Source: Natrinema marinum
GTDB lineage: Archaea > Halobacteriota > Halobacteria > Halobacteriales > Natrialbaceae
Direction of reading: 5' to 3'
DNA length: 64,000 nucleotides
NCBI RefSeq assembly: GCF_024296685.1
Contig: NZ_CP100763.1
Coordinates: 2,728,001-2,792,000 of the forward strand
Every line of letters starts with the position of its first letter. Position 1 is the stretch's first letter. Position numbers and translations under genes: made by a program. The notes beneath the pieces are model-generated. The model was not told the origin of the DNA, did not search any database, and saw only the letters and a program-made list of their open reading frames with translations. Shown piece by piece: positions 2,235 to 23,131 of this stretch.

Positions 2235-2236
2235 CA

Positions 2237-7036: not shown

Positions 7037-7079
7037 CCGTCAGCGGTGATTTCCAGTTTCCAACTAGTTAAAGCCCCTA

Positions 7080-7412
7080 CTATTTCACGTAGTGGTCACT
7101 CCACTGCTCCAACAGATCATACGCAGGATGCTTGTACAGTACCTCATCACAGGATTTGCATGCGGTGTACAGACTCCCCTTCTGGTCCCAATAATCGGTG
7201 CGTTGGACCACTCCGTCCTCGTGGTGGCCGTAGTGCCCGCCCTCATACCGCAGGTGATTGAACTCAGTGCCCTGGCACTTGGGACACGGCTCAGACAGGG
7301 CATTCCAGTCCGCCCGGATGACCGACTCGAGTTCGAGCAGTTCATCTGCTGACAGCCGTAGCTCGTATGTTTCCACAATTCTGTTCTCATCATTGATTCC
7401 CATTCCGGTCAC
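7080..7412 (-). CDS. small zinc-ribbon protein, unknown role
   Basis: A 110-residue protein with two CxxC knuckles, CPKC near 43 and CKSC near 87, which would form one zinc ribbon. Between them lies a His-rich GGHYGHHEDG segment, and an acidic helix of about 25 residues precedes the first knuckle. The GTG at 7412 gives MTGMGIND; an ATG three codons on is an equally good start. It lies 43 bp upstream of the GIY-YIG gene on the same strand, so the two may be co-transcribed. Function is not recognised. Confidence 0.6.
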   Translation of the reverse strand: MTGMGINDENRIVETYELRLSADELLELESVIRADWNALSEPCPKCQGTEFNHLRYEGGHYGHHEDGVVQRTDYWDQKGSLYTACKSCDEVLYKHPAYDLLEQWSDHYVK

Positions 7413-7581
7413 CTGATTGTTCTACTTGGACAGTACCCCTGATTCATCGAGACTTATTTGTTCAGCACCCTACCTGTGTTATCTGGTAGTGCAGATTTTG
7501 ATATACTTCCGTCACTTCTGATCGGTTTCCGTAGAGTCTACGGCGTTCACGTCAACTGGCTCGACCGTTCGTCCATCCACA

Positions 7582-7612
7582 GCACTGTTATTTGTACACT
7601 AGTTGACAGTGC
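7582..7612. repeat. inverted repeat beside the first integrase
   Basis: GCACTGT and ACAGTGC flank a 17-bp AT-rich centre containing TGTACA, about 70 bp past the 3' end of the recombinase gene. It could be a recombinase core site, an operator or a hairpin. The rest of 7413-7681 holds an AT-rich TTATAAATAA box at about 7619-7628 and no gene. Confidence 0.4.
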
Positions 7613-7681
7613 AGCAGAGTTATAAATAACGAGAGGCCGTGTTACAGTTGTTACCTCTAATTCAGCGTCAGGGAACTTAGT

Positions 7682-8932
7682 TTACTCTTCTTCGTTTGAC
7701 TGTGTGAACGCGTCCAATTGGTCGAGTATTCCTTTCTCCTCGAGTTCTGCGAGCCGTTCGAGGATCTGGTGTTTCTCCTTCTGTGTCGACTGTTTCTCGA
7801 GGGACAATGGTCGTCCGCATGTCCGGCATTCGGTTTCTTTTGGCTGGTTCTCAGTACCACAGAAACTGCAGTTTACAGGTTGGTTCTCGTCTTCTTCGCC
7901 ACTGAGCCCGTATTCATCTCTGATGGCTTGGTTGACGTCGTCGTTGTTGAGGTGTACGTAGACCTTCGCACGATTACTCCCGGGTTTCCAGCCAGCGAAC
8001 TTGTTCAGTTGCTCGTATCCCATGAACGTCGCGACCTCTGTCAGACGGGTGTGGCGCAAGTTGTACGGTCGACGTTTGTTCTCTGGGACCTCGGCCTTTT
8101 CACATGCATGTTTGAATCGGCGGAGAAAGGCATCATATGGCAGTCGATCGCTGCGGTCGGGTTCGTAGCCGCAGTCTTCAGGGTGACTCTGTGGTGTGTT
8201 TCCGCAGTGGTGGCATTGTTGCTGTTCAGTCTTCACCCAGAGCGGAGCCGATAGATCTTTGATGTCTCCGAGTTCGCCGCCAAATGGGTGTTGGGCGAGC
8301 CACTCTCTGACTGTTCGTCCGGCGCGAACGAGCTGGTTGGTTCGATCTGGTGTGCCTTTGAGACCTTCGAGGAAAATGAAGTCGCCGTGTTCGGTGCTAG
8401 TGAAGTCACAGATGTTCGTCGCAAGGAGTTCGCCTGGTCGTGCTGCGGACTCGTATAGGATTTTGGTGAATGCACGGTCACGCGTGTTGGTGAACGCCTG
8501 GTAGAGTCGTTTGAGTTCGTCGGCCGTGAAGAGGTCCTCTCGTGTGACCTGTGTCTGTTTGCCGCCAGCCAGACTAAAGAACTGGACTTTCTCTGGATGT
8601 TCGCGTCCGCCGTTCTCGACTTTGTAGAATTTCTTGAGCGCGCTCTTGAGCGTGTACTTCGTGGCGTCTGCGTAGTCACTCCGATTGAGGCCAGCGACTA
8701 ATTGCTTGAGGTCGTCTTCATTCGCGGTACGGAGTATGAACTCGTCGGGCGCGAAGTTCTTAAGCAGTGTCTTGAAGGCGGAGACGAGCCGGGTCTGTCG
8801 GACTTCACTGATGCCTTCGGCGGCGCAGTGATCGACGAACGATTGTATCGCGTCGATGTTCTCTGCTTGGAGTTCGCTTTCTGTTAGATTTTGAAGGGTT
8901 CGATCGATATCGACGTAATCGGTTGTGCTCAT
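7682..8932 (-). CDS. tyrosine recombinase with two zinc ribbons
   Basis: A 416-residue phage-type integrase. The N-terminal SAM-like core-binding domain spans roughly 20-115. The catalytic domain shows ARPGE (first Arg), LRHTR (HxxR), GWKPGS and a Tyr in AKVYVH. A CHHCGNTPQSHPEDC insertion falls between the first Arg and HxxR, and a second CSFCG..CRTCG ribbon follows the catalytic domain, then a Glu/Lys-rich coiled tail. Extra zinc ribbons are common in haloarchaeal integrases and probably help DNA binding. It is far from the element's right edge, where a second recombinase sits, so it may mark a nested or older insertion. The start is the ATG at 8932. Confidence 0.88.
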   Translation of the reverse strand: MSTTDYVDIDRTLQNLTESELQAENIDAIQSFVDHCAAEGISEVRQTRLVSAFKTLLKNFAPDEFILRTANEDDLKQLVAGLNRSDYADATKYTLKSALKKFYKVENGGREHPEKVQFFSLAGGKQTQVTREDLFTADELKRLYQAFTNTRDRAFTKILYESAARPGELLATNICDFTSTEHGDFIFLEGLKGTPDRTNQLVRAGRTVREWLAQHPFGGELGDIKDLSAPLWVKTEQQQCHHCGNTPQSHPEDCGYEPDRSDRLPYDAFLRRFKHACEKAEVPENKRRPYNLRHTRLTEVATFMGYEQLNKFAGWKPGSNRAKVYVHLNNDDVNQAIRDEYGLSGEEDENQPVNCSFCGTENQPKETECRTCGRPLSLEKQSTQKEKHQILERLAELEEKGILDQLDAFTQSNEEE

Positions 8933-9538
8933 GGTGTAGGTTCACGTGGTAATAGAGATGAGGTGTCGGTGAGGCCACGCTTCTATTGACCGTCTTTTAC
9001 CGGAGTTCGGTTGGTAGGCAGTGAACTGTGTGTCCGACGCCCTCTCGGGGCTCTGAACTAACGGTTCGGAGCGTGGTCTCGGTCCACTATTTCTCCTCGT
9101 TTCGATTGGGTTTCATCTTTATCCTCTCGAGCAATAGTTTTAAGCACTACTGCAGATCCCTGTATATTTCATCTGTTGTTCTGCGGTGTTGTCGACACCG
9201 TCTGGTGACTCGCGCAGCCATCGTACGATCGGATACCCATTTTATGTCTCTATCACGCATCGGAACTGGCGGGTGCATTTGCTCTTAGTGACGTGCGACT
9301 GGTATCCTTCTCAGGCAAGCGAGTTACCAGACACTATGTTCCGTCTTGCCGAATACCCCTAAGACCCTACTGAGCAGGATTCTTTGGCATGGTTTTCTGC
9401 CGAAGTGGCCGAACTAGGTCGCCTTTCCCACATCCTTCTTGTTCCAACCGTTTCTGGTGTACTGGGTGGCAGATTACAGAGAATAGTCTGCAGTAGATGA
9501 TGCCAGAACAAGACGTTATACCGTTTGATACGGCGACT
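8933..9538. other. 606-bp intergenic stretch
   Basis: This AT-richer stretch lies between the recombinase start and the HerA gene end. Short open frames on both strands have Cys-, Ser- and Arg-rich products unlike acidic haloarchaeal proteins, and none has a convincing start. It probably carries the recombinase promoter; nothing else is recognised. Confidence 0.5.
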
Positions 9539-11560
9539 CTATGGCCATTCGTCGAGGGCATCGGAAACGTCCCGTACCAAGTGAAAGACGACCTGATCCG
9601 TATCAATCCCTGCATCGTCGAACCGTCGTTTCAACCCGTCCAGGATGTTCTCTGTTTTGCATACAACCCAGATCACATCGAACCCGTATTCGAGGTGTTT
9701 CTCGACGTGTTCCCGCTCTCGCGGGGTGTTTTCCATAGCAACCTCGATAGCGACTTCGAATTGGCCAGTATTGACATAGACATCTGCATCGAAGAGTTCG
9801 AGAGTTGTGGCCCACCCCGCTTCTTCGAAGGCGTTTTTCACCTTGTGTTGCCAGTACCTGTGGACAACACCGCCACGACCTTCGTGGCTTGGATCGAGAT
9901 CCAACGTATCCTTGACGTGAGTACGGCCTCTGTCCGTCAGCTCAAGCAGTTTCCGAGCACCGGTTTCTGTATGGGTCGAATGTTCTGTGACTAATCCTGT
10001 CTCTACCAGTTCAGTCTTAGCCTTATTACCCTTGTACCGACTTGAAAAGCGGTCATACCGCTTAGTCAACGGAATGAACGGTTTTTCCACCACCCCTTTC
10101 AGGAGGTGTTCCGCTTCGTCGGAGACCGTGACTTTGGATGGCGGGTCGTCGATTACCGAGGTTTCCTCGGAGTCGGTGTTCTCGGACTGGACGGTTTCTG
10201 AGAACCGTGGTGGCTGCTTGCGTGGCTCAGCCGTCAGTGAGTTCCAGAGTTGGCCTTGAATCCTCTGTAGATCCGGGTCCGTAACAGTTTTCGCCAACTG
10301 ATACTCGTCAAGCGTTACTCTGGCCGGATCGCTGTTTCCGACCTGTACGACTGCTTCCCCGATATCGAGGTCTTTAGCGGCATTGGCTTGCCGCTGAGTA
10401 AGGTTCATTGACTCCGCAACCGCGTGGAACTGTTTCCGGTCGCCGGTAGAGAGAAGGATCTTGGTGTACGTGTTTGCCTTGATTGAATCGGTCAACTTCG
10501 AAGCCTCCTGATCTGCTACGATCAGTCCTTCCCCGAACTCCCTCATTTTCGCCGTCAGTTCGTCGACGGCCGGGATACCTGCTTCATCCTGCCTTTCTTT
10601 GTAGACGCTGAATACTTGCTTTGCCTCGTCAAGGACGAACACATGGTTGAGATCGTCTGAACGGTGGGACTGGGCTAGTCGGTATTCGTAGACAGCCGCG
10701 AGGATAATCTCCATCAGAAAGTTCTGCGTGTCACGACTTAATCCGTCAAACTCGAACACGACATTCCGTTCGAGGAGTTCAGCGAGTGGATAGCCCTGAC
10801 TACAGTCGAAGATGGTTCCGGCTCCGAGGTTCATCGCTTCTATACGGTTGAGGACTGTGTCCCGGTAGTTCGAGGTTTTCCGCACGTAGTTAATGTAGTC
10901 GGAGGTGAGGAACTGCTCGAGTTCATGGAAGCTGGGATACGGCGGCGAGTTCTCATCGAAGAGTCCGTACAGACGGTACAGTTTGAGAATGGATTTTAAG
11001 AGATGGTTTTTTGATCCGGACAGGAGGGCGGTAGCGTGGCCGAAGATCTCGCTGACGACCTGTGCCCATCGCCGAGGTTGGACATCAGGTGGTGGGACTA
11101 ACGGATTCAACTTGAGTTCTGTCCACGGTAAAACCAGTATGTCGTCTCTTTCTTGGGTGAGGTGGCGGTAGTCCTGTTTGAGATCGAAGCACCAGAACGG
11201 GACGTCTAACTGGGAGAGAAGGTTATAGAACAATGTGGTTTTTCCGGAACCTGACTGGCCGATGGCCAGGAGGTGTTTCGAGAGCAGTGATTCATCGAGG
11301 CCGTAGGCATGTTTCGAACCGGTTGTCCCGATACTGAGTCCCTCTGAAGTAGGAGTGCCTGCTGTAACCGGAGGTTTGAACGGGTATGCGCGGTTCTGTG
11401 CTAACGTGGCTGCCAGTGCTTGGCGTCCGTGTTTCTGAAGCGGCTCCGGTGCAAGGGTGTTGAACAGTACGAGACGCCGGATACGTGGATCCGAGAGCTC
11501 CTCTTTCTCAAGTACTTTAAGCAAGGACATCCGATTTCTCGAGCGAGAGTCAGTGGCCAT
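9539..11560 (-). CDS. HerA/VirB4-like ATPase with winged-helix and nuclease-like tail
   Basis: The 673 residues hold a HerA-type RecA fold: Walker A GQSGSGKTT at 101-109, Walker B HVFVLDEAKQ and a downstream IVADQEASKL segment. After about residue 480 comes a winged-helix region (KAKTELVETGLVTE). The last ~130 residues contain a DADVYVNTGQFEVAIEVAME strand pair, in which an Asp is followed by E-V-A, a pattern like degenerate PD-(D/E)xK nucleases. HerA ATPases pump DNA for an attached nuclease, in repair or defence. It follows drmC on the same strand after 224 bp. It may be an extra arm of the DISARM-like locus, or serve DNA transfer like the VirD4-like gene at 30 kb, which has a similar tail. 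Confidence 0.75.
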   Translation of the reverse strand: MATDSRSRNRMSLLKVLEKEELSDPRIRRLVLFNTLAPEPLQKHGRQALAATLAQNRAYPFKPPVTAGTPTSEGLSIGTTGSKHAYGLDESLLSKHLLAIGQSGSGKTTLFYNLLSQLDVPFWCFDLKQDYRHLTQERDDILVLPWTELKLNPLVPPPDVQPRRWAQVVSEIFGHATALLSGSKNHLLKSILKLYRLYGLFDENSPPYPSFHELEQFLTSDYINYVRKTSNYRDTVLNRIEAMNLGAGTIFDCSQGYPLAELLERNVVFEFDGLSRDTQNFLMEIILAAVYEYRLAQSHRSDDLNHVFVLDEAKQVFSVYKERQDEAGIPAVDELTAKMREFGEGLIVADQEASKLTDSIKANTYTKILLSTGDRKQFHAVAESMNLTQRQANAAKDLDIGEAVVQVGNSDPARVTLDEYQLAKTVTDPDLQRIQGQLWNSLTAEPRKQPPRFSETVQSENTDSEETSVIDDPPSKVTVSDEAEHLLKGVVEKPFIPLTKRYDRFSSRYKGNKAKTELVETGLVTEHSTHTETGARKLLELTDRGRTHVKDTLDLDPSHEGRGGVVHRYWQHKVKNAFEEAGWATTLELFDADVYVNTGQFEVAIEVAMENTPREREHVEKHLEYGFDVIWVVCKTENILDGLKRRFDDAGIDTDQVVFHLVRDVSDALDEWP

Positions 11561-11784
11561 ACGTTAACGCTTGAGAGACAAGTTCGAATATAATTGTGGA
11601 CACTCTGTTTCCCTTACCGGTCGATGGCAATTCTGTTTCTTTATCTGGGGTACTCTGTGAAACGCACGGCAAAGTTACTACTTTATGGAAATTAGGCCGA
11701 TAATCTTATATCAGCTCGAGCTTTTGATCGTGTCACAATGGGACAGCGTTGAAAAATTATACCGCCCCGCTACTCCCGTCGCTA

Positions 11785-12660
11785 CTATTCTACTGACTCC
11801 TCAAGAATTTCACGTGTCACAGCGTCTGCCTTGGCTTCGAAGAAATCGAAGAAACCGGTCCACGTCTCAATGTCTGTTTGGCTGCGCGTCAGATATCCCG
11901 CTTCGCCATTAAGCATCATAGAGCTATTGCGTAACTCACCACTTCCGACGTACGCAAGTTGATTGTCCGCAATTATCATTTTCGCATGAATGCTTCGATC
12001 CAGCTTCGGCTGTTTTCCTCCAATCGCGTGATAGAAATCATACACGGAGAGTGAACTCTCAGAGGAGGCGACCGATTCGAACCGATCCATAAGTTCTAGA
12101 ATAGCCTTTCGACCTCGGTTGTGGCCGAAGTCGTCTGCTGGTCGTAAGAGTTCTCTCGTCAGGAATTTTATATTCGCTCCCGACGAAGCTGCCTGATGGA
12201 ACTCGTCTTCTAAGCGAAGTAATCCATCAAGTTCGAAGAATGGTACCACTAATCGGAGTGTTGAATCGGCTGTCTCGAACACTTCGGCGAGTGCGTTCTC
12301 TAACCAGACCCCCGAATTGATGTTCTGGTGTTCCGCATAGTCTTTCCACTCTTCCTGATGTTTGGTGGGGATACTCACAACCGGTTGGTACGTTTCGTCT
12401 GTCACTCCCCTCCCTCCTGGAAGTGTTTCGGATTCTAACACCTGGTAATAGGCTTCCCGTTCCGCTTCTGGATCCTCGAGTTTGAATTGGCCGTCGCTGT
12501 GCCCGGCGACGATGTCTCTCCGTACGAGAGCGTCGAGGTATTCTCTCACAAAGTTTCGGACATCCGGGTCATCGTACTGGTCTGGAATCCCGTCGAGCGA
12601 CACCTTACCGGTGGTACGCAACCTCTCGTGAATCCAGAGGTAGATGTCGTCCTCACGCAC
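11785..12660 (-). CDS. drmC: DISARM DrmC, phospholipase D-like nuclease
   Basis: A 291-residue protein with an N-terminal winged-helix-like region (1-65) and a single PLD domain. The HKD motif is H225-A-K227 with Asp232, followed by YVGSGEL and N251GEAGYL, a typical PLD active site. PLD proteins of this kind work as dimeric, metal-independent nucleases. DrmC is the third core gene of DISARM anti-phage systems. The GTG start at 12660 lies inside the drmB 3' end, which carries GGAGGTGA just upstream, so it is coupled to drmB with an 8-nt overlap. A PLD protein, DpdK, also occurs in bacterial Dpd clusters, so it could instead belong to the dpdA side. Confidence 0.85.
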   Translation of the reverse strand: MREDDIYLWIHERLRTTGKVSLDGIPDQYDDPDVRNFVREYLDALVRRDIVAGHSDGQFKLEDPEAEREAYYQVLESETLPGGRGVTDETYQPVVSIPTKHQEEWKDYAEHQNINSGVWLENALAEVFETADSTLRLVVPFFELDGLLRLEDEFHQAASSGANIKFLTRELLRPADDFGHNRGRKAILELMDRFESVASSESSLSVYDFYHAIGGKQPKLDRSIHAKMIIADNQLAYVGSGELRNSSMMLNGEAGYLTRSQTDIETWTGFFDFFEAKADAVTREILEESVE

Positions 12661-14401
12661 GACGGATCACCTCCGCTGCGAGGTGCCGGTCAAGAAGGCT
12701 ATTTGCAGGAACGTATCCTTCGACCTCTCGTGAGACAAACGGATGACACCGAGCGTCATCAGTGAACACACATGAAAGGCAGGCGTCAGTACAATCACGG
12801 GAACAGTCGCTGAGTATCTCTTCAGTCCGCTGTAATGTCCGTAGGAGTACGCTGCCTGTCTTGTTCATCGTGATTTGACTCAGTCCACCCGCGCCTACGT
12901 CTCGTTGTTCGACGAGAACGATCGCACCTTCTTCGATGAGTACCTTCGCGGCGAGGAAGTCCTCAAGACCTGTCTCCTCAATGGCTGCTTGGTACAAGGC
13001 GTGCTGGTAAGCATGAAGGAGTGGAGTAAGTCGTAACCCAGTCTCACCATCTGCAATTTCGTCTGTGTCAAAATCGTTCAACTGTGTCAGTTCCCGTGCT
13101 GCGATTGCCTCGTACTCGGCATCGCCATTACTCACGACATCTGCCAAGACATCGGTCCGGAGGTCGAAGACGATGCCACGTCCCTCGCGTCGGGTAAGGT
13201 AGGCTGTACGTTCTCGGTCTGAATCGCTCGAACTAAAGCTACGAGCTAACCGACCGTGTGTCTCGAGGTCGGTTCCACGTGAGTCGACGTTTGATTCATA
13301 CCCATACACTGCGGACACGGAACTGACATCAGAAACTGTGAAGACATCGTTTAGACTGAACGTATCGTAGAAGATGGCCTGACTGCCAGGCGTGATTGTG
13401 TCGAGGTTCCAGTGATACGTATCGTCGTCAGCCTGGTTTATCTCGCTCGCTTCGTAGAGTGCTTCTAGGCTTGTTCCCGTCCCGTCGTTACTCACGATGT
13501 CCTCGAGGATAAGCGGTTGCGTGTGTTTAGCATCGATAGTCTTCGGCCGCATCTCAGAGAGGACTTCTTCTTCGCCGTCAGCAGCTGGTTTGTGACAGGT
13601 CGGACACTGCCCATAGAACTGGTCATTGTGGTTGCGACTCTCCGAGCAAAAGAACCGAACGCCGGCAAGCCGATCACCAAGATTGACGTGCAGGTGACCA
13701 CTACAATTGTTCTCTGGACAGGCAATGCGGTCTCTAGTGTCTTCCTTGCTGATCACCACGCTCGGCCCTGGCCCGTCAATGGATTCTTGCATCCATTGGT
13801 GTGGACTCGCCTGTTCAATGTGTGCACATCGTGGACAGACAAACAAGTACGGGAACCGGCGCATCTGATGACGTGAGCTGTGGGGACAGTCGACGGATCG
13901 TTTCATCGCATCCGGACTCTCGACTCCGAAATGATTACACGACGGATCGGTGCACCGATACACTCGCGGGAATGGGACACTAATAACTTCTGAGTCCTCA
14001 CATAACTCCGCTAATTCGATATCGCTAGACGAAAAATCGTACGAACGTGTCGTTTCGTTGGTATCGCCGGCGCTATTCGTATTATTGGTCGCGCTTGAGC
14101 GTTCGGCGTAGCGGCGGAATGCGTCTGGCATATCATCTGTGACCGGTTCGTCAGCCACATCTTCGTCCGTGTCTCGCTGTTCGTATGCCGCCTGCTGTCG
14201 GTTGCTCGCGTCGGCTGTGTACGAGTAAAACTCGGTGTCCAAGTTGGTAATAACGGTCGCGAGTCGGTCGGCGAATGGACCAAGATCAGTTGGTTCTTTG
14301 TTTTCACGAATGGTCTGCACTTGCACTCGGTGGCCATCTTCGGAACGGACTCTCCCAGGATACGCCGTCAGTAGGACCTGATATTGCGATAACCGTGACA
14401 T
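12653..14401 (-). CDS. drmB: DISARM DrmB, DUF1998 helicase partner
   Basis: About 582 residues if started at the ATG at 14401, which overlaps the drmA stop as TAATG behind a strong GGAGGTGA. Several zinc knuckles occupy the first half (CTDPSC, CPRC, CPENNC, CPTC). The C-terminal third has the DUF1998 signature: VLVEQRDVGAGG, a helix, then CSRDCTDACLSC. DUF1998 proteins pair with helicases, and in DISARM DrmA and DrmB form the DNA-loading complex. Gene order drmA-drmB-drmC matches the known core. No methyltransferase gene is next to it, which is unusual for DISARM. The assignment rests on domains plus order. Confidence 0.85.
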   Translation of the reverse strand: MSRLSQYQVLLTAYPGRVRSEDGHRVQVQTIRENKEPTDLGPFADRLATVITNLDTEFYSYTADASNRQQAAYEQRDTDEDVADEPVTDDMPDAFRRYAERSSATNNTNSAGDTNETTRSYDFSSSDIELAELCEDSEVISVPFPRVYRCTDPSCNHFGVESPDAMKRSVDCPHSSRHQMRRFPYLFVCPRCAHIEQASPHQWMQESIDGPGPSVVISKEDTRDRIACPENNCSGHLHVNLGDRLAGVRFFCSESRNHNDQFYGQCPTCHKPAADGEEEVLSEMRPKTIDAKHTQPLILEDIVSNDGTGTSLEALYEASEINQADDDTYHWNLDTITPGSQAIFYDTFSLNDVFTVSDVSSVSAVYGYESNVDSRGTDLETHGRLARSFSSSDSDRERTAYLTRREGRGIVFDLRTDVLADVVSNGDAEYEAIAARELTQLNDFDTDEIADGETGLRLTPLLHAYQHALYQAAIEETGLEDFLAAKVLIEEGAIVLVEQRDVGAGGLSQITMNKTGSVLLRTLQRTEEILSDCSRDCTDACLSCVFTDDARCHPFVSREVEGYVPANSLLDRHLAAEVIRRA

Positions 14402-17400
14402 TACTCGTTCACCTCCGAGGGCAGCTTCCACTCAATCGTTGTCCCGACCTGTTCGTCCGAGGTTCCCCGGAGTTCGAGATCTTTGTCTTCGAAGTATTCA
14501 GAGAACCACTCGTTGATGTTCATGGATCTATTATTTACGCGGGCCTGGGTCGCGGCCTCAAACCATTTACTCTCATGCTCTCTGGTCCCGATAAAATCAA
14601 ACAACTGATCTATTACCTGTTCATCAATAACGTCTAGAATCTGACTGTCAAGTTGAACGTCGGGAGGACAGAAAATGCTGCGCATGTCAGCATACAGCTC
14701 CTGTGCATGAGGGTTCTGTAATGGCCGGTCGTGTTCGTCGAACATTTTGACTAAGTCTTGGATGTCGTGCGGATTGTCATAGTCGAACGCCTGCTCGCGA
14801 ATCGCGTATTCTATCGTCAGAAACGGCCCGAGCAAGAATTCGAAGAGAATACGCGCCAAGTATGGATTTGTTGGATGAATTGCGGCAGTGTCGTAGTAGT
14901 CGTCAACGTTCCCAAGTAGCTGGTGAAATTTCCGTTCGATCTGCATGTCGCGTGGCTTTCCAGGATACAGATGGATAGCTGCGTGGCCAGCTGCATCTTT
15001 TCGTCCTGTTCGCCCAATGGTCTGCATCTGCTCCGACATGCTTCGGGGCGCACCGAACAAGAGTAGGTTATTGAGCTCCGGGATGTCGATACCCAGGGAC
15101 ACCACCAAGTTCGCTAGCACTACCGGGTCTGCCGCTTCGCTCCCCATCCCCATTGATTTTCGAAGGGCAGATTTTGACGACTCGCCGGAAATAAACTGTA
15201 GATCACTCAGGCCTCCGTCACTGATCTGATCCGCTCGGTCCCCGATAGACTCCCGTAGCGAATACCCGTCCGATTTCCGGTGAAGATAGCCCAGAATCTG
15301 TTCGTAGTGACTGATATCAGCATCGACACGGGCGTCTCGGATCGCTTCCTCGAAATCATTGCGGAACTCCGTTCCAGACGTCGTATTGTGGAAGTCATCA
15401 TACAGTTGTACGATCGCTTCCCGGAATGACCCTCTGTTCGACGTTGCGACCGGTGTCCCTGCGAGGATTCGATAGCGAACACGGTTCTCTACCATACTAA
15501 AGTAGTCGCCATGTTCACCACTGTCTGGGACGGCAACTATCTCGTCTTCGGAGGCGCGTAGTAACCGTGAGATGTGTTCGAATTTGTTACTGATCGTCGC
15601 TGTCCCTGAGTCGACTGAGATGGCATGGCTATCTCGGTCCCGAGTCTCACCAGACCGTAGACGCGAAGCCAGTACTTCGAAAAAGCGGAGAATGATCGAA
15701 ATGGAGATTCCGAACTGGCCAGTGTACATGTGCGTCTCATCTAGCACGATGTGACCGATTGGTGAGTGCTCGGCACCCTCGCGATCCGATTCACTCACCT
15801 TCCAATCCACCCCGTTCCATGGAGTGGTGACACGATCGTTGGTGTTACAAACGAAACACACCAGTCCATCCCGGTCGTTGAGCACTCGATAATTGTTCAT
15901 ATCAGTGAGTGCTCTTCCGCAGTTCTCGCATTTACTGTATGGAGCGCCATAGAACGGCAACGTGGAGAAGGTTGAGTGGTGCGTATTCGACTCTACGGTC
16001 GGCATCGTGAAGAACTTCTCCGGCGTTCCGACGGTCAAACTCGGCAGATACTGTTGGGTTCGCTCCACGTCGTATACGAAGTCGTATAGGAACCCGCACT
16101 CAGAGTTGGTGCAGACGGGGAACTGTAGGTGATTGTCCATCGTGTCGAGACAGTGTCTGGAGTCACAATCTTGACACTCTGTGTCCAACTCGGAGCCACA
16201 GCAATCACAGCTCCCAATATACCCAACGAGATCATCGGCATCCAAGTATGTCCGCTCACCGGTCTCATCATACTGCCGCCCGATTGCGACCCCCACAGAG
16301 AACTCTTGATCGGGCATCAAACTCCCTGCATTGGAATGGTGTTGTCCTTGGACGTATCGCTTGTATTTTGTAGCGAGTTCGATCACTTCCTCTAGTTTGT
16401 CTTCGGTTAGCATCCGCGTCGGAAACGGGAATGCGGCGCGTGTATCTCGCTCGAGGATTGTCAACAGCGTTGAACCGTAGTAAACGATGGTCTTCCCAGC
16501 AGAGGTCGGTGCCTGAACGACGACTGGTGACGTCTCATCATCAAGGAGGGCAAGTGCCCTTTCTTGGATTGCGTCCCACTGGAATTTGTGAAGTGTTGGT
16601 TCGTCGTCTGCGGTACGCCCTGATTCGTACTCGTCGCTCTCGATGGGAGGCAGGTCACCAAGGTAGTGTCGAAGTGCCAATAGAACTCCCCGAAGATTTC
16701 GGAGCAGGGTCTCGTGTTCACGAGCGGCCGTCGCCTCTTGGGCTAGCACAGGAGCAGCTTCTAGCAGCTCATCATTGTCCATACAGACTAACTGGTCCAG
16801 CCGGTAACCCGAGGTGACCGGTTCCTCTTCGACGTAATCGTACACCCCGAATGATGTCGTTCTGAACCGTTCGCCTGCTTGTGGCACATCTCTTGTCTCC
16901 AACCGTGTCTCGAATGATTCGACAGTCCGTGTGAGGTAGCAGTCCTGTTGCCGATACCGGTTCTCTTCACTTACGTCACGGGAATTATCTTCTGCAGACA
17001 GTGCCGACTGTAGTTTCACGTCGTGCTGTTGACTCGGAAAATCAACGACCATTTCGTCGAATTCGAGTTCCATTGATGGATAGAAGACGCGCCGTTCGGC
17101 CCACCCTGACTGGTCGTTTTCGTCCACATATGTCTCGTTCCTCATCGTCACTGTGAGCCGGACGTAGTCATCGGAATCGCCCGCCGGCGTCAAACCCCCG
17201 AGATCTTCGTTCACCGATACTGTGAGACTCAGTGTTAGTGTCGGCCGATTATAATTAATCTCGGCAGTATCTCCACTCAATTCTGAGAGATTATCATCGG
17301 TTGCACCCGTGCGATCAAGCGCACGTCTCTCCTGAGCATCTCGGTTTGGGTTGATGACTGCAGCCTGCGTCTGGGTTCCTGCGATCGTGATCGTTTCTTC

Positions 17401-17895
17401 GTAGTCTGTATCGTTCGAAATGGGGATGGATTCTGGCCCAGCTTCGAACTGAACGGGAATCGCTGTGGTCGCAAACGGTCGCTCCGCGGTATACATGTTG
17501 TGTGGTTCCCCACCAATCATGAGCGTTGGCAAGTGATTTTCTGTTAGTTGATACGGCGAACTGTAATCAACATCCAGATATGCACCGACGAATCCGTCGA
17601 TAGCGACGGTTAACTCAGCGTCAAGACTGTCGCGTTCGACAAGAACGTGGACACGGTGGGCAGACGGGTTTTTGAACATTGCATCGTCGAACCCACCAAC
17701 CGGGCGCGGGACGAGACAATTTCCATCACCAACTTCGTCAGTACGGACGCCGCGGCGGTAGGTAAAATCTGTGAGGTGCTCTACAGAGAGTCGGTCGAGA
17801 TATGATGCATCCTTAGTGGTTGGCCGCAGTTGTGGAAGCAATTGATCTTGGAGAACCGTCTGTGGGTCACCGTCAGGAAGAAGCCGTGAATCCAT
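14401..17895 (-). CDS. drmA: DISARM DrmA, superfamily 2 helicase
   Basis: A 1164-residue helicase. The N-terminal ~430 residues are acidic and beta-rich, of unknown fold. Walker A APTSAGKT is at 462-469, the DETH box at 719-722 and motif VI QTIGRTGR at 958-965, with VVSLGIDIPELN just before it. Between motifs I and II lie two zinc clusters (CDCCG..CQDC..C and CENCG..CFVC). Length and layout fit DrmA. DISARM DrmA translocates on DNA with unmethylated ends to block phage entry. It leads a coupled drmA-drmB-drmC operon. An ATTTATTAAC box sits right before the start codon at 17895, so transcription may begin slightly upstream or the true start may be internal. Confidence 0.85.
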   Translation of the reverse strand: MDSRLLPDGDPQTVLQDQLLPQLRPTTKDASYLDRLSVEHLTDFTYRRGVRTDEVGDGNCLVPRPVGGFDDAMFKNPSAHRVHVLVERDSLDAELTVAIDGFVGAYLDVDYSSPYQLTENHLPTLMIGGEPHNMYTAERPFATTAIPVQFEAGPESIPISNDTDYEETITIAGTQTQAAVINPNRDAQERRALDRTGATDDNLSELSGDTAEINYNRPTLTLSLTVSVNEDLGGLTPAGDSDDYVRLTVTMRNETYVDENDQSGWAERRVFYPSMELEFDEMVVDFPSQQHDVKLQSALSAEDNSRDVSEENRYRQQDCYLTRTVESFETRLETRDVPQAGERFRTTSFGVYDYVEEEPVTSGYRLDQLVCMDNDELLEAAPVLAQEATAAREHETLLRNLRGVLLALRHYLGDLPPIESDEYESGRTADDEPTLHKFQWDAIQERALALLDDETSPVVVQAPTSAGKTIVYYGSTLLTILERDTRAAFPFPTRMLTEDKLEEVIELATKYKRYVQGQHHSNAGSLMPDQEFSVGVAIGRQYDETGERTYLDADDLVGYIGSCDCCGSELDTECQDCDSRHCLDTMDNHLQFPVCTNSECGFLYDFVYDVERTQQYLPSLTVGTPEKFFTMPTVESNTHHSTFSTLPFYGAPYSKCENCGRALTDMNNYRVLNDRDGLVCFVCNTNDRVTTPWNGVDWKVSESDREGAEHSPIGHIVLDETHMYTGQFGISISIILRFFEVLASRLRSGETRDRDSHAISVDSGTATISNKFEHISRLLRASEDEIVAVPDSGEHGDYFSMVENRVRYRILAGTPVATSNRGSFREAIVQLYDDFHNTTSGTEFRNDFEEAIRDARVDADISHYEQILGYLHRKSDGYSLRESIGDRADQISDGGLSDLQFISGESSKSALRKSMGMGSEAADPVVLANLVVSLGIDIPELNNLLLFGAPRSMSEQMQTIGRTGRKDAAGHAAIHLYPGKPRDMQIERKFHQLLGNVDDYYDTAAIHPTNPYLARILFEFLLGPFLTIEYAIREQAFDYDNPHDIQDLVKMFDEHDRPLQNPHAQELYADMRSIFCPPDVQLDSQILDVIDEQVIDQLFDFIGTREHESKWFEAATQARVNNRSMNINEWFSEYFEDKDLELRGTSDEQVGTTIEWKLPSEVNE

Positions 17896-18008
17896 TCTTA
17901 GTTAATAAATTCCCGCACTTCTCATTAACTTGTCCTATTCATTCCCTTCCTACTAAGGGAAAAGAACTAGACGGTACACGGTAGTAGTGATTTCGTCGAG
18001 TACTGCCC

Positions 18009-18584
18009 TCATCTATCTTTCTGTCGTAGCCATTCTTTATACGAAACCCATGGGCTGTATCGTCTGTGTATGGTGGCGAGTTCGCTTGCCCGCTCCTGCA
18101 CATCGTGGGGGCTCTTGATGTGACGACCAGTGAATGTGAAAAATTTCTGTCCGTCAAAGAGTTCAACCGGGAAGTTCTTTGCATGGCCGTATTCACTTTC
18201 TAAATTGTAACCTGATGCTAAGATATGGAGTCCATGGCCGCCGACCGAGACCTCGGTGTACGAATTGACTGTGGTAAAGATATCCTTGCTGGCGTCGTTA
18301 GTGAATCGAAGTTCGTTGTCAAGACAATCGTCTAAATCAATAAGGACAAGTTCGTCATCAAGACCCATGGCAAAGCCGACTCCTTCTGGAGCTTCGTGAT
18401 CGGCGTACGCAAGTTGTGCTTCCTGATAACTCATATGATGTTCCTGCGTTTTGAGTACATCAACGGCCCTGCCTGATGCAGGGTCAATAGGCTCCTTATC
18501 AGCATTGAAACATGCCCACCTATCACGTTGTTTCAGCGAGTGTAAGAGTTCGTTCGATGCTATCTCTGATTCCTGAAGTTGCAT
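18009..18584 (-). CDS. PrimPol-like protein, primase domain only
   Basis: About 191 residues when started at the ATG at 18584, 25-35 bp from an AAATATTT box and so probably leaderless; an earlier ATG at 18635 would put the promoter inside the gene. The core shows GVGFAMGLDDELVLIDLDD, VSVGGHGLHIL and FDGQKFFTFTGRH, the pattern of primase-polymerase (AEP) domains in plasmid and phage replication proteins: metal-binding D-x-D, then a GxHxx motif and a T-G loop. No helicase domain follows, so it is only the front half of the usual replication protein. It could prime replication of the element together with the nearby Orc1/Cdc6 proteins. Confidence 0.65.
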   Translation of the reverse strand: MQLQESEIASNELLHSLKQRDRWACFNADKEPIDPASGRAVDVLKTQEHHMSYQEAQLAYADHEAPEGVGFAMGLDDELVLIDLDDCLDNELRFTNDASKDIFTTVNSYTEVSVGGHGLHILASGYNLESEYGHAKNFPVELFDGQKFFTFTGRHIKSPHDVQERASELATIHRRYSPWVSYKEWLRQKDR

Positions 18585-18607
18585 TAGTGGGTCTGTGGGA
18601 TTGGAAC

Positions 18608-18622
18608 TGGAAAAATATTTAC
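18608..18622. promoter_or_regulatory. shared divergent TATA box
   Basis: AAAAATATTT lies between the PrimPol-like gene and the SLATT-like gene, whose ATGs are only 75 bp apart. The near-palindromic box is well placed to serve transcription both ways, giving a leaderless leftward transcript and a short-leader rightward one. Confidence 0.45.
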
Positions 18623-18659
18623 ACCCATTGTACAATTGATACCGTACACTCTCTTGACG

Positions 18660-19358
18660 ATGAATTCTGATACAGATGATGATTCTTGGCGAAGGCGAGA
18701 ATTACTGTTCCGACAGGCGATGAAAGATAAGAATCTGTTATACAAGACCTACAGTCGGTATTATAGGGCCCATCACATCACAACGAAAGCAGGTTGGATC
18801 TCCACGGGGCTCACAGCAATCATTGGTGCCGTTCTTCTGTATGTGATCACATCAGCCACGTTCAACTTACCAGTGATCAGTGGATATCTTCAAGGAACCG
18901 ACGACGTTCTAGCGATTTTGCTGCTCATCGTCTCATTGATAGACGCATTTTACTCACCGGAGGCCCGGTCGATCAGGTACTATAGAGCAGGGCAGGACCT
19001 TCAAGAACTTCATGACGAGTACGAGAACTTTGTCAACCTGGCTATCGCTGACCCTGGTCGAAATATCGATACGCTAGCCGAAGAATTCGAACAGCTGCAC
19101 AAAAGACGACACAGGTTGAACAAATCAGTCCCTCAACTCAGTGGAATTTGGCATTCGATGGTCAAAATGGATCAACACGGCTACCGAACGTTGATACCTT
19201 TCGTTCCTAGCAAGCAGAAATTATCGGTTCGGAGTTTAATTGAGTCGAAGCTCTCATCGGAAAATGAGGGACGTTCGTCCCCTAAAAAACAGTGGGAAGA
19301 GACGCTGTCGGAGAAAGTTAATGGGTTCAAACAGAAAGAGACTGTAAATCAAAACTGA
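18660..19358 (+). CDS. SLATT-like two-helix membrane protein
   Basis: About 232 residues from the ATG at 18660. A basic N-terminal helix (LLFRQAMKDKNLLYKTYSRY) leads into two membrane segments, about 43-63 and 75-100, then a helical cytoplasmic part with YYRAGQDLQELHDEYENF. This layout matches SLATT domains, predicted pore-forming effectors found with nucleotide-second-messenger and reverse-transcriptase defence systems. No cyclase, SMODS or sensor gene is adjacent, so it would be an orphan effector, or a toxin held by the PrimPol-like neighbour. The family call is by pattern only. Confidence 0.6.
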   Translation: MNSDTDDDSWRRRELLFRQAMKDKNLLYKTYSRYYRAHHITTKAGWISTGLTAIIGAVLLYVITSATFNLPVISGYLQGTDDVLAILLLIVSLIDAFYSPEARSIRYYRAGQDLQELHDEYENFVNLAIADPGRNIDTLAEEFEQLHKRRHRLNKSVPQLSGIWHSMVKMDQHGYRTLIPFVPSKQKLSVRSLIESKLSSENEGRSSPKKQWEETLSEKVNGFKQKETVNQN

Positions 19359-19492
19359 AATTAGCTGGAATGGTTTAGGAGATTACTGGTCCAGCATAAC
19401 CAGCACGCAAACAGACTTGTCGAACCCATAATTATTTACACTTCTTAGATAGAACTTGTTACAACTGCTTAAAAAGAGGAAAAGGCAGGGGT

Positions 19493-20500
19493 TTAGGCCC
19501 GTGTCTGATGTTCTGCCATAAGTTCCCGGAGGCTTTCTTCCTCCCCATTCCAGTACGTCTCTGTCTCGTCTTGTTCTTCGATGAACTGGTCAGCCCGGTC
19601 CTCTACCGTTTCTTTTCCAAGTTTGTTGGCATTCGGTAGTTTCGAGTATCCGTTTTCCAGGAGGGTCGCTGCCTTCTCGAAGCCAGTGTCGAGTTCGTAG
19701 TCGGGAACATCTTTGCTGTAATGTGTGAGCGCACGTGTCGCAGCGTTGTATGTCTCCCAGAGCGTCGGACTGTCTTTGTCGTTGATCTCGTCGTGTAAGG
19801 AGTTCAGGAGGTCGGGTACTGGCTGCTCGAGGTACTCTCCGAGACCTTGCTCGAGTAGGACCAGTAGTGCTTCGTCCTGGTTGAGAAAGGTCTGGTTCTG
19901 TGCTTCTTTAATCCGGTTCTCGACGATTTCCGGGCTTTCAACAACGCTGTCAACCGCGTTGTAGGCAAGGCTGGGTTGGAATGGCTCGCTGTGTGTCTGT
20001 TCGAAATGAAGCCGTCCGTCGAAGGCCATCATTCCGTTGCTGCAGACCTGACGCATCCCTCCGACATCGTATTTGACTGCGTGGAAGCCGGAGTGGCCAG
20101 ACTGGATCTGTAGTCCGAGCTCGATAGGATCATCGTCGGCTGCATATACAGTTGTGTCGCCGGTGAAGCCGATTTTAGCACTCATTTTGTGTGCAGTAGG
20201 TGATAGACTGATGGTTCCAGTGACACCAAGATCGTAGCTGTCTTGATGACGATCTATAGCATCACAAATCGTCTCCAAGATATCTCCGTATTGGATGATG
20301 TTGTAGAAGTCTTTCGAGGAGGAGACCACGCCGGTTGCCCGCAGATCATCCGTCCACAGCGAGTCTCTATACGGGATTTCCTCCCACACGTCCTCGCCCT
20401 CGTGATGTGCGTAGACCTCGTGACGCTCAACCTGTGGTAGTTTATCCGTGGTTTCGTATAGTTGGTCTAAGTCGTCGAAAGCATAGGTTTGTTCTTGCAT
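19493..20500 (-). CDS. DUF932-like protein
   Basis: About 335 residues, using the ATG at 20500. A longer frame reaches 20587, but its extra codons are a conserved DNA motif shared with the origin region, so the shorter start is preferred. The centre has GGMRQVCSNGMM, the hallmark of DUF932 plasmid/phage proteins, preceded by a beta-rich region with IQSGHSGFHAVKYD. The C-terminal half is an acidic helical domain. DUF932 proteins are common in mobile elements and sit near replication genes; no biochemical role is established. It follows the small Orc1/Cdc6 gene after about 80 bp on the same strand and is probably co-regulated with it. Confidence 0.65.
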   Translation of the reverse strand: MQEQTYAFDDLDQLYETTDKLPQVERHEVYAHHEGEDVWEEIPYRDSLWTDDLRATGVVSSSKDFYNIIQYGDILETICDAIDRHQDSYDLGVTGTISLSPTAHKMSAKIGFTGDTTVYAADDDPIELGLQIQSGHSGFHAVKYDVGGMRQVCSNGMMAFDGRLHFEQTHSEPFQPSLAYNAVDSVVESPEIVENRIKEAQNQTFLNQDEALLVLLEQGLGEYLEQPVPDLLNSLHDEINDKDSPTLWETYNAATRALTHYSKDVPDYELDTGFEKAATLLENGYSKLPNANKLGKETVEDRADQFIEEQDETETYWNGEEESLRELMAEHQTRA

Positions 20501-20551
20501 CTGTACATCGCCTCGTTCTACCAGAGGAAGTGGGGTTGAAGAGAGTAGTAG

Positions 20552-20576
20552 CCAAGGGGATACCCTGTTTCGTATG
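20552..20576. repeat. copy of a GGGATAC...TTTCGTATG motif
   Basis: The plus strand reads CCAAGGGGATACCC followed by TGTTTCGTATG. Parts recur at 21446-21463 (GGGATACTATTTCGTATG) and, inverted, at 21515-21530. It lies between the small Orc1/Cdc6 gene and the DUF932 gene and may be an operator or Orc-binding site. Confidence 0.5.
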
Positions 20577-20583
20577 AATTCAA

Positions 20584-21390
20584 TCAATCATCTACTTCGG
20601 TGAGATCCTGTTCTGTGACCTCGCGTGTGCCTTGCCGCATTGCCCGGTGTCCGGCCTGAAGCAGTTGTTCGAAAGCTTGCCGGCAATCACCTGTATTGTC
20701 TGCGACCTGTTCTGCGATAGTCTCAATCACTTCGTTGCTGACCGTTCCGGGTTTGAATGTCTGTTCCACGGCATCTTGAAGGATCTTTTCAAGCTGGGTA
20801 GCGGTGTAGGGTTCGAACTCGATGGTTCGGCAGTTAAGCCGGCTCCAGCTCCGTGAGTCAAGCATGAGCTCGTCCGGTGGGAGATTGGATGTCACGATTA
20901 GTCCAAGTTTGTTTTCGGTTTGTTGGCTGAGCATATGGAGGTCGTACGCAACCTCGGTCTTTTCTTTCAACTGGTCGAATTCATCAAGCGATACGGCGAC
21001 ACTCCGGTTTTTCTGAAGCCATTCACGGAGTTTGGAGAGTAGTTCGTCGACCGGTTTGCCTTTGCGTGGTGCTGGATATCCGAGTTGGATCAGTAGTTCG
21101 GTGAGTAACGCGGGACGAGTAGAGTACTGCCAGCAGTTGATCTGAATGGTTTTCACACTGGTCTCGGTTGCGAGTGCGTCGAACACATGGTTGACACACA
21201 TGGTTTTCCCGGTTCCGGGCGTTCCGTGGATAAGCAGGGTTTCAGGTGTATTGCGTTTGATCAGTGGCCGGAGACCGTCACGGATCGCATGGATTTCTTT
21301 GTCGCGACCCGTGGGCTTGAGGCTGGCTTCACCGTTCAGGTAGCGTTCTGAATAGATGATGCCACTGCTAGTAGAGGTGTTGTCAAACAT
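20584..21390 (-). CDS. Orc1/Cdc6-type AAA+ ATPase, short form
   Basis: A 268-residue AAA+ protein with Walker A GTPGTGKT near 56-63, Walker B VAVSLDEFD, sensor-1 VTSN and sensor-2 GDCRQAF. The fold is that of Orc1/Cdc6 initiators, but the usual C-terminal winged-helix DNA-binding domain (about 100 residues) is missing. It may form a complex with the longer Orc1/Cdc6 encoded in the opposite direction 211 bp away, or act as a regulator. Such short, divergent Orc paralogues are common on haloarchaeal plasmids and integrated elements. Its start is the ATG at 21390. Confidence 0.8.
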   Translation of the reverse strand: MFDNTSTSSGIIYSERYLNGEASLKPTGRDKEIHAIRDGLRPLIKRNTPETLLIHGTPGTGKTMCVNHVFDALATETSVKTIQINCWQYSTRPALLTELLIQLGYPAPRKGKPVDELLSKLREWLQKNRSVAVSLDEFDQLKEKTEVAYDLHMLSQQTENKLGLIVTSNLPPDELMLDSRSWSRLNCRTIEFEPYTATQLEKILQDAVEQTFKPGTVSNEVIETIAEQVADNTGDCRQAFEQLLQAGHRAMRQGTREVTEQDLTEVDD

Positions 21391-21601
21391 TGGTGGATCA
21401 CCTTCACTTGGTTTGTCTGTCAGTGGGTATTCAAAAGCAGAACCTGGGATACTATTTCGTATGTGGGAGAGTGTACAGGCTTTCGAATGGATACACCGCT
21501 AATAGTTCTCTCATGGGGTATCCCCCTTGGGTCATGTTTTTCCCAACTGAAGGCCAGTGTCCGAAAATCCGTGTGAGTCCTGACCTCCAAATACTAAGTC
21601 T
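21391..21601. other. candidate replication origin between divergent orc genes
   Basis: This 211-bp gap separates two divergent Orc1/Cdc6 genes, the usual site of haloarchaeal origins. It holds GGGATACTATTTCGTATG (21446-21463), TTTCGAATGGATAC near 21481 and GGGGTATCCCCCTTGG (21515-21530). All are related to the element at 20552-20576 and occur in both orientations, as origin recognition boxes do. No long AT-rich unwinding tract stands out. The gap must also hold both promoters. Confidence 0.5.
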
Positions 21602-22660
21602 ATGACCGATATTATCGATACCGCTGACCCGTTGACTCGAACGTATCTCCCCGCACAACTCATCGATAGAGAATCAGAACAGGAGACCCTGTCAGAAGCG
21701 TTTGCGGCTGATACAGAGACTCGGCTTCAGCACATCCATATCTACGGACCCCGTGGGACCGGGAAAACCCATCTGGTCAAACAGTTTCTTACAACGTTTC
21801 CTTCAACAGTGACCACCTGCTACGTCTCAGGACGGCCACACGACACCCAGTACAAAGTCTTGGAACGACTGCTCCAACAGTTGACCGGTGAACGCGTTGG
21901 AACCGGCCATCATGTCTCTGGTCTCCAGCGCCGGATTGAACAGACGCTGACCTTGGAGACCGTGATCGTTCTCGACGAAGTTGACTTCCTTCTCTTGAAT
22001 GATGGCGATGATCTGCTCTACTTCCTCACCCGGCTGGAGAATACCGCAGTAATAACGGTTTCAGCCAACCACCGAAGCCTCGAATCCGAGTTGGATGCAC
22101 GAACTTATAGTTCGTTCCAGCCTCAAGTCCTTACATTGAACCCGTGCACACCAAGTCAAGTAGAACAGATTCTTTCAGAACGTGCCCGACGGGCGCTGGA
22201 GCCGCAGTCAGTTGAACGTACAGCGCTCTCACGGATTGCCTCAACAACCCCGAACATCGCTATCTGTCTCTCCTGGCTACGGGTGGCTGCTGAAGCAACT
22301 GATGACGCAGTTACTCGCGACGTCGTTGACGAGGTTCAGTATACTGGTTATGCTGAGTACGTCTCTGAGTTACTCGACGAGTTCACACCTCACCATCGGC
22401 GGTTATACGAAACGATTGAACTCTTGGAACAGAACGAATCAGAGACTTCTCTCTCAGGCACTGTGTATGATACGTACCGCGAACGGTGTTCTGACACCGA
22501 TGTCAGACCGTTAAGCGAGCGGCGTACCAGCGATTTCTTGACCCATCTCGAACTCCTGGGATTAATCGAGGCTGACTATCACTACGGGGGACGGAAAGGC
22601 AAAACCCGGGAAATCCGGCTCGTAGACTGGAACAGCGATAATCCGTCAGAAGAAGAGTGA
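21602..22660 (+). CDS. Orc1/Cdc6 replication initiator
   Basis: A 352-residue protein with Walker A GPRGTGKT near 49-56, Walker B VIVLDEVDFL, sensor-1 VSANH and a C-terminal winged-helix domain (SERRTSDFLTHLELLGLIEAD). This is the full Orc1/Cdc6 plan, slightly shorter than chromosomal versions (~400). It would bind origin boxes and help load MCM, here for the element. It points away from the candidate origin. Its 3' end overlaps the convergent coiled-coil gene by 15 nt. Confidence 0.85.
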   Translation: MTDIIDTADPLTRTYLPAQLIDRESEQETLSEAFAADTETRLQHIHIYGPRGTGKTHLVKQFLTTFPSTVTTCYVSGRPHDTQYKVLERLLQQLTGERVGTGHHVSGLQRRIEQTLTLETVIVLDEVDFLLLNDGDDLLYFLTRLENTAVITVSANHRSLESELDARTYSSFQPQVLTLNPCTPSQVEQILSERARRALEPQSVERTALSRIASTTPNIAICLSWLRVAAEATDDAVTRDVVDEVQYTGYAEYVSELLDEFTPHHRRLYETIELLEQNESETSLSGTVYDTYRERCSDTDVRPLSERRTSDFLTHLELLGLIEADYHYGGRKGKTREIRLVDWNSDNPSEEE

Positions 22661-23098: not shown

Positions 23099-23131
23099 AC
23101 CGGATTCTATGTTAGTAGGTCCAGCACAGAC

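What the first reader, a model, noticed from the sequence alone, without database searches (positions are those of the whole stretch)
11785..17895. Complete drmA-drmB-drmC core without methyltransferase, drmD or drmE
Seen: the three core genes in canonical order, translationally coupled with strong Shine-Dalgarno sequences (TAATG and 8-nt overlaps). Known: class 1 DISARM adds a methyltransferase and drmD, class 2 a methyltransferase and drmE. None is adjacent. A methylation-free DISARM would need another way to spare self.
Basis: partly seen in the sequence, partly recalled or inferred. Interest (0 to 1): 0.75.

Follow-up and report, generated by a model that had tools for sequence, protein, structure and literature searches.

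The report
DISARM core beside a deazaguanine-marking module
A salt-loving archaeon carries the three core genes of the virus-defence system DISARM without its usual DNA-methylating enzyme; in all six sampled genomes that have this version, a gene set predicted to mark DNA with an altered guanine base (7-deazaguanine) lies nearby, so self-DNA may be marked with a different chemistry.

Summary
In detail: drmA-drmB-drmC are intact, in order and translationally coupled, with no methyltransferase, drmD or drmE nearby. This is the 7-deazaguanine-type module of Dpd and of the haloarchaeal BRIGADE systems.

Among 391 Halobacteria genomes, 42 have the module's ATPase and 6 have this drmB clade; all 6 have both, linked within about 20-25 kb (hypergeometric 1e-6; 1e-4 over four lineages). 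Three canonical haloarchaeal DISARM loci lack the ATPase. No methyltransferase co-varies. Near-identical modules pair with drmABC in the window but with another YprA helicase in two other genomes.

Best explanation: a DISARM-type restriction core that spares self through a 7-deazaguanine mark instead of methylation. The mark and its sensing are inferred. A related plasmid drmABC lacks the module and sits near cytosine methyltransferases. New variant of a known kind; not a member of DISARM class 1 or 2 as defined.

The parts
14401..17895 (-). drmA: YprA-family SF2 helicase (1164 aa), DISARM branch
   Evidence: PADLOC DrmA 1.3e-43; best PDB profile hit is Serratia DrmA 7s9v, 2.7e-8; 100% bootstrap grouping with the DrmA of canonical haloarchaeal DISARM loci, apart from BRIGADE and Dpd-type helicases
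12653..14401 (-). drmB: DUF1998-type zinc protein as a separate gene (582 aa); TAATG overlap with drmA
   Evidence: PADLOC DrmB 2.4e-24; invariant CxxxC..CxxC..DD..C motif in five homologues
11785..12660 (-). drmC: PLD-type nuclease, one HKD motif; 8-nt overlap with drmB
   Evidence: Pfam PLDc_2 over cut-off; PADLOC DrmC 2.7e-10; HAKMIIAD motif
1..331 (+). DUF6884a (149 aa; the gene begins at window -118). Directly upstream, outside the window at -1059..-127, lies a 310-aa DpdA homologue
   Evidence: DUF6884 4.9e-38 in the G370 copy; DUF6884a and the 310-aa protein match the adjacent pair gp32 ('YaaA', 8e-21) and gp33 (DpdA, 3e-21) of Halorubrum tailed virus 29
491..1012 (+). DUF6884b (173 aa ORF; likely start at about 530): weak DpdC match, ArcS-like CSxxK motif
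   Evidence: DUF6884 9.2e-13; PADLOC DpdC 9e-5; profile match to the ArcS DUF5591 domain, probability 73%, aligning the CS..K residues
990..2234 (+). TGT paralogue (414 aa), candidate DNA-guanine transglycosylase
   Evidence: TGT 6.5e-27; DpdA models 1.5e-6 and 5e-6; PDB 1iq8 archaeosine TGT 2.9e-20; catalytic Asp residues and CxCxxC...H zinc ligands kept
2237..3802 (+). GHKL/MutL-type ATPase (521 aa), next to the TGT gene in all 14 loci examined
   Evidence: HATPase_c_3 6.9e-14; adjacency
3887..6376 (+). GmrSD-family (DUF262 + DUF1524) nuclease, 829 aa
   Evidence: Pfam GmrSD_N 1.1e-27 and GmrSD_C; SspE / Orf5 / HEC-06 models in PADLOC
7682..8932 (-). tyrosine integrase of the mobile element
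   Evidence: Pfam Phage_integrase 8.7e-10
9539..11560 (-). HerA/DUF87-type ATPase downstream of drmC; part of the element, no drm-linked relative found outside G370
   Evidence: Pfam DUF87 7.6e-5 and PADLOC mad8/HerA; comparison of loci
1..32213 (.). right part of a 33.8-kb integrated element (window -1561 to 32213) that carries all of the above
   Evidence: one block, 98.1% identical to G370 (another genus), different flanks

Best explanation
The locus is a DISARM-type restriction core (DrmA helicase, DrmB, DrmC nuclease) that works with a 7-deazaguanine DNA-modification module instead of a methyltransferase. Inferred steps: the host makes preQ0 for its tRNA archaeosine; the DpdA homologue and the TGT paralogue, perhaps helped by the GHKL ATPase, exchange chosen guanines in the element's and host's DNA for a preQ0-type base; one or both DUF6884 proteins (DpdC/ArcS-like) may convert it further. 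DrmAB loads on exposed DNA ends and is licensed on unmodified incoming DNA but restrained on marked DNA, as Serratia DrmAB ATPase is restrained by 5-methylcytosine. DrmC, perhaps with the GmrSD nuclease, then destroys the foreign DNA. Shown here: gene content, intactness, family assignment, conserved catalytic residues, linkage, cassette exchange and absence of a co-varying methyltransferase of the families searched. Not shown: that the DNA is modified, that the mark restrains DrmAB, or that the genes defend.
For: (1) All six genomes with this drmB clade (of 391 Halobacteria) carry full-length orthologues of the module's ATPase, which only 42 of 391 have: hypergeometric 1.1e-6, or 9.7e-5 over four lineages. 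The module lies within about 20-25 kb in all six; for G106 the two contigs join through one IS copy flanked on both sides by the 8-bp duplication GACTAAAG. (2) In G290 (drm proteins about 37-38% identical to the window's) the module and drmABC run on one strand as dpdA-DUF6884a-DUF6884b-TGT-ATPase-GmrSD-drmA-drmB-drmC. (3) Cassette exchange: closely related modules (GmrSD 95-99%, TGT 86-94%, DpdA 95-96% identical) follow a YprA-type helicase in G142 and G295 (with a PLD nuclease seen in G142), which have no drmABC. (4) Three canonical haloarchaeal DISARM loci lack the ATPase orthologue; in G352 a DrmMII-like methylase follows drmABC, and G257 and G113 have a syntenic gene of similar size. (5) The 310-aa protein is a homologue of the DpdA of a haloarchaeal virus (PMC8651126); the TGT paralogue keeps its active site. 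(6) QueC, TgtA and ArcS are on the chromosome. (7) No methyltransferase co-varies. (8) Module and core travel together on one 33.8-kb element found in two genera.
Against: Defence genes cluster, so linkage alone is weak evidence. The module's ATPase occurs in 36 sampled genomes without this drm clade. In G290, G081 and G106 the module also has Dpd/BRIGADE-type helicases, so drmABC could be a passenger there. In the window the two parts are on opposite strands, separated by an integrase and a HerA-type gene. One relative, the drmABC of the Haladaptatus sp. DYSN1 plasmid (DrmA about 38% identical), has no such module on its plasmid and has two cytosine methyltransferases from 3.6 kb downstream of drmC, although that fits exchange of marks equally well. 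Serratia DrmAB discriminates partly by DNA structure (PMC9142583), so a mark may be unnecessary. DUF6884 chemistry rests on a weak profile match. No relative of the 310-aa protein, DrmA, the ATPase or the TGT paralogue was found in the IMG/VR collection.
Confidence: 0.55

Rival explanations
1. Two independent defence systems share one mobile element. The TGT module marks DNA for GmrSD (an Ssp/Dpd-like pair), while drmABC avoids self by DNA structure alone, needing an exposed 5' end, and uses no mark.
For: Serratia DrmAB binds ssDNA and 5' overhangs and not dsDNA, limited by a trigger loop (PMC9142583). GmrSD directly follows the ATPase in window, G370, G142, G295, G290 and G340. The module is seven times commoner than this drm clade. 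Strands differ in the window.
Against: 6 of 6 co-occurrence against a base rate of 42 of 391, the single-strand arrangement in G290, the exchange with a YprA-PLD pair, and absence of the ATPase orthologue at three canonical DISARM loci.
Confidence: 0.33
2. Self is marked by a host methyltransferase encoded elsewhere, such as the PF01555-type enzyme found in all six genomes.
For: The genome has N6, N4/N6 and 5mC methyltransferase-family matches.
Against: All are more than 1 Mb away. The 5mC enzyme is found in 2 of 6 drm genomes. The N6 enzyme has no orthologue in G370, which carries the 99%-identical element. A mobile element relying on one host's methylome could not move between genera safely (inference).
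Confidence: 0.06
3. drmABC is a decaying remnant of a class 1 or class 2 DISARM that lost its methylase.
For: The accessory genes are absent.
Against: All three genes are intact with pN/pS 0.09-0.23. The same methylase-free arrangement persists in lineages whose DrmA are only 29-37% identical.
Confidence: 0.04

Closest known systems
BRIGADE (Bell et al. 2025 preprint, PMC12458937)
   Same: Haloarchaeal; predicted 7-deazaguanine cluster plus helicase and PLD-type nuclease. The DUF6884b-TGT-ATPase genes here are orthologous to those at loci with two YprA helicases that fit the BRIGADE description.
   Different: BRIGADE usually has two ARMADA- or Dpd-like YprA helicases of one gene each. The window element has none; its helicase is split into DrmA and DrmB and falls in the DISARM branch.
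DISARM class 1 and class 2 (Ofir et al. 2018; Bravo et al. 2022, PMC9142583)
   Same: drmA, drmB and drmC in order; DrmA groups with the DrmA of canonical haloarchaeal DISARM loci.
   Different: No methyltransferase, drmD or drmE; scores to the known families are low. A 7-deazaguanine-type module is present instead.
Dpd (7-deazapurine in DNA) system of bacteria
   Same: DpdA-type transglycosylase, DpdC-like match, helicase plus PLD nuclease.
   Different: No dpdD to dpdK set in the element; the restriction part is drmABC. G290 carries DpdH- and DpdJ-like genes in addition.
Halorubrum tailed virus 29 gp32-gp33 ('YaaA'-DpdA)
   Same: Adjacent gene pair homologous to DUF6884a and the 310-aa DpdA homologue.
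   Different: Viral; suggested to modify virus DNA with the host's preQ0 (PMC8651126); no restriction genes annotated beside it.
SspE / GmrSD modification-sensing nucleases
   Same: DUF262 + DUF1524 architecture of the 829-aa protein.
   Different: Linked to a deazaguanine-type module, not to phosphorothioation genes.

Membership tests
DISARM (class 1 or 2) | drmA helicase of the DISARM branch of YprA | tested here: met
   PADLOC 1.3e-43; PDB 7s9v DrmA best profile hit; 100% bootstrap with haloarchaeal DISARM DrmA. Far below the NCBIfam DISARM_DrmA cut-offs.
DISARM (class 1 or 2) | OB-CON-DUF1998 protein DrmB as a separate gene after drmA | tested here: met
   PADLOC 2.4e-24, conserved zinc motif. 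No Pfam match; structure prediction failed, pLDDT 31.
DISARM (class 1 or 2) | PLD nuclease DrmC after drmB | tested here: met
   PLDc_2 over cut-off, HKD motif; NCBIfam DrmC_I 27.7 bits against cut-off 133.
DISARM (class 1 or 2) | DNA methyltransferase DrmMI or DrmMII in the locus | tested here: not met
   None among scanned neighbours; nearest methyltransferase-family match more than 1 Mb away, none co-varies.
DISARM (class 1 or 2) | drmD (SNF2 helicase) or drmE | tested here: not met
   No match among scanned neighbours; only SNF2 match of the genome at 1.65 Mb.
DISARM (class 1 or 2) | DrmA trigger loop and methylation-sensing contact | tested here: inconclusive
   DrmA model unusable, pLDDT 29.
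BRIGADE | 7-deazaguanine module in a haloarchaeon | tested here: met
   Orthologous DUF6884b-TGT-ATPase genes, plus dpdA homologue and DUF6884a.
BRIGADE | one or two ARMADA/Dpd-like single-gene YprA helicases | tested here: not met
   None found within 20 kb left of the window or inside the element; the genome's single MZB match is about 0.9 Mb away.
Dpd | DpdA-type transglycosylase | tested here: met
   310-aa homologue of HRTV-29 DpdA; TGT paralogue with weak DpdA model hits.
Dpd | dpdD-dpdK restriction genes | tested here: not met
   No convincing match in the window element; only marginal hits of DrmA to DpdF and DpdJ.
7-deazaguanine DNA modification | modified nucleoside in genomic DNA | not testable with these tools
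   Needs LC-MS of DNA.

The most novel reading that the evidence does not exclude
A third class of DISARM in which a base-exchange mark (7-deazaguanine) replaces methylation, showing that the DrmABC core accepts chemically unrelated self-marks and that marking and restriction cassettes are exchanged between DISARM, Dpd and BRIGADE.
Probability: 0.5. Interest if true: 0.78.

Novelty: new variant of a known kind. Interest (0 to 1): 0.64.

Why it matters
DISARM is defined by association with methylation, and how DrmAB tells self from foreign DNA is unsettled. Natural loci where the same core sits with a chemically different mark make a direct test possible: does DrmAB sense a mark in general, an altered base of a certain kind, or only DNA ends? 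They also suggest that the DISARM, Dpd and BRIGADE families exchange marking and cutting cassettes on mobile elements.

Tried and rejected
Structure prediction of DrmA and DrmB from three-sequence alignments gave pLDDT 29-31 and was not used; no fold search was run. Profile comparison of the 310-aa protein with the TGT paralogue found no link; its DpdA identity rests on the viral homologue. Scans of IMG/VR viral contigs with the 310-aa protein, DrmA, the ATPase and the TGT alignment found nothing. The genome-contig scan gave only the two loci already known as G106 and G081. Enlarging the drmB search to 125 genomes of the window's family and 170 of G055's family added no new member. A co-varying methyltransferase was sought and rejected. 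The chromosome's other YprA gene was considered as a hidden BRIGADE helicase: it is about 0.9 Mb away, without module genes beside it, and served as the tree root.
Full report
Observation. The window lies on the 3.77-Mb chromosome of a haloarchaeon. The minus strand carries drmA (14401-17895), drmB (12653-14401) and drmC (11785-12660), with a TAATG junction and an 8-nt overlap, each preceded by a strong Shine-Dalgarno. PADLOC assigns DrmA, DrmB and DrmC, with scores that mark them as distant members; NCBIfam DISARM models stay far below their cut-offs. A profile of this DrmA finds Serratia DrmA (7s9v) as its best solved relative. In a tree of 22 helicases from these loci, rooted on the chromosome's own YprA gene, the window's DrmA groups with DrmA of canonical haloarchaeal DISARM loci (100% bootstrap) and apart from the BRIGADE-type and Dpd-type helicases. 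Compared with a 99%-identical copy in another genus the genes are under purifying selection.

On the plus strand of the same element lie DUF6884 proteins, a TGT paralogue, a GHKL ATPase and a GmrSD nuclease, and just left of the window a 310-aa protein. The latter has no Pfam, NCBIfam, PADLOC or PHROGs match but matches DpdA (gp33) of Halorubrum tailed virus 29. The neighbouring viral gene gp32, annotated YaaA, matches DUF6884a. Liu et al. 2021 name the viral protein as the enzyme replacing guanine in DNA and suggest that the virus relies on the host's preQ0 (PMC8651126). The TGT paralogue keeps the catalytic aspartates and the zinc ligands of the host tRNA enzyme. DUF6884b shares a CS..K motif region with the archaeosine synthase ArcS in a weak profile match (probability 73%) and touches DpdC models weakly. 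In nine of the 14 loci examined, an ArcS-like TGT+DUF5591 protein accompanies the module, with an intact PCSxxKPY motif in those inspected except the G340 copy, where the simple text search found none. The host has QueC, TgtA and ArcS.

Linkage. Of 391 Halobacteria genomes, 6 have this drmB clade and 42 a full-length orthologue of the ATPase; all 6 have both. The hypergeometric probability is 1.1e-6, and 9.7e-5 if near-identical or paired lineages are merged to four. Five are visibly linked within about 20 kb. In the sixth, G106 (Natrinema mahii H13), drmABC ends one contig and the module begins another; both contig ends lie in the same IS copy, with the 8-bp duplication GACTAAAG on both outer sides, so they are very probably neighbours. 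In G290 module and drmABC form one co-directional run although its drm proteins are only about 37-38% identical to the window's. Closely related modules in G142 and G295 follow a YprA-type helicase, with a PLD nuclease seen in G142, and those genomes have no drmABC. This exchange is the main reason to read drmABC as the restriction arm of the module and not as a bystander. A uniform-chance estimate for proximity is not relied on, because defence genes cluster.

Contrast cases. Three other drmABC loci seen in the sample (G352, G257, G113) form a separate group. In G352 a DrmMII-like cytosine methylase follows drmABC; G257 and G113 have a syntenic gene of similar size there. None of the three has the ATPase orthologue. 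A drmABC on a Haladaptatus sp. DYSN1 plasmid belongs to the window's clade, has no TGT module on that plasmid, and has a DrmD-like helicase upstream and two cytosine methylases downstream. Its chromosome was not examined. This is a counterexample to strict co-occurrence, yet fits exchange of marks.

Methyltransferase test. N6_Mtase, N6_N4_Mtase and DNA_methylase families were searched in all six drm genomes. In the window's genome nothing lies near drmABC, and nothing present there is specifically shared by the six.

Mobile element. A 33.8-kb block (window -1561 to 32213) is 98.1% identical to a locus in another genus, with different flanks. It carries an integrase, Cdc6-like genes and VirB4/TraD-like ATPases, so marking genes and restriction genes travel together. 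No tRNA marks its ends.

Mechanism and limits. Serratia DrmAB prefers 5'-overhang ssDNA and its ATPase drops on 5-methylcytosine DNA (PMC9142583). By analogy, a 7-deazaguanine mark would restrain DrmAB on self DNA. That the DNA is modified, that DrmAB senses it, and that the locus defends are inferences. The main rival is two independent systems on one element.

Relation to known systems. Bell et al. [quoted passage not shown] The text that was read does not describe drmABC with this module; its supplements could not be read. I therefore file the locus as a new variant: a DISARM-type core, outside classes 1 and 2, linked to a BRIGADE/Dpd-type marking module.

Noticed in passing
window 18009-19358: A PrimPol-like protein and a divergently transcribed SLATT-domain membrane protein lie beside drmA and are conserved beside drmA in G055 (68% and 67% identical), but not in G290, G081 or G106; the SLATT protein could be an extra effector.
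   Followed up: partly
window -1561 to 32213 (L012 plus window): A 33.8-kb integrated conjugation-like element shared at 98.1% identity with another genus; its divergence is uneven (TGT, GmrSD and drm genes pS 0.01-0.02, dpdA and DUF6884a pS 0.07-0.10), suggesting recombination inside it.
   Followed up: partly
L112 (NZ_CP120471.1, Haladaptatus sp. DYSN1 plasmid): drmABC of the same clade with a DrmD-like helicase that also matches PLD-helicase and PbeA models, and two cytosine methyltransferases with a MutH/Sau3AI endonuclease downstream.
   Followed up: partly
L111 5610-6735 (Halorubrum tailed virus 29 gp32-gp33): The viral 'peroxide stress protein YaaA' next to DpdA is a DUF6884 homologue of the chromosomal module, which suggests a role in DNA modification instead of peroxide stress.
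   Followed up: partly
L022 end and L062 start (G106 C7 and C1): Two contigs of Natrinema mahii H13 can be joined through one IS copy by its 8-bp target duplication.
   Followed up: yes
window 6473-7036: A GIY-YIG nuclease-domain protein follows the module in several genomes (window, G370, G142, G295, G081) and may belong to it.
   Followed up: no
L015 8560-11988 (G055): A 1142-aa protein with a DpnI_C-type HTH and an McrB-like AAA domain lies beside the TGT module; related genes occur near the module in G079, G326 and G253.
   Followed up: no
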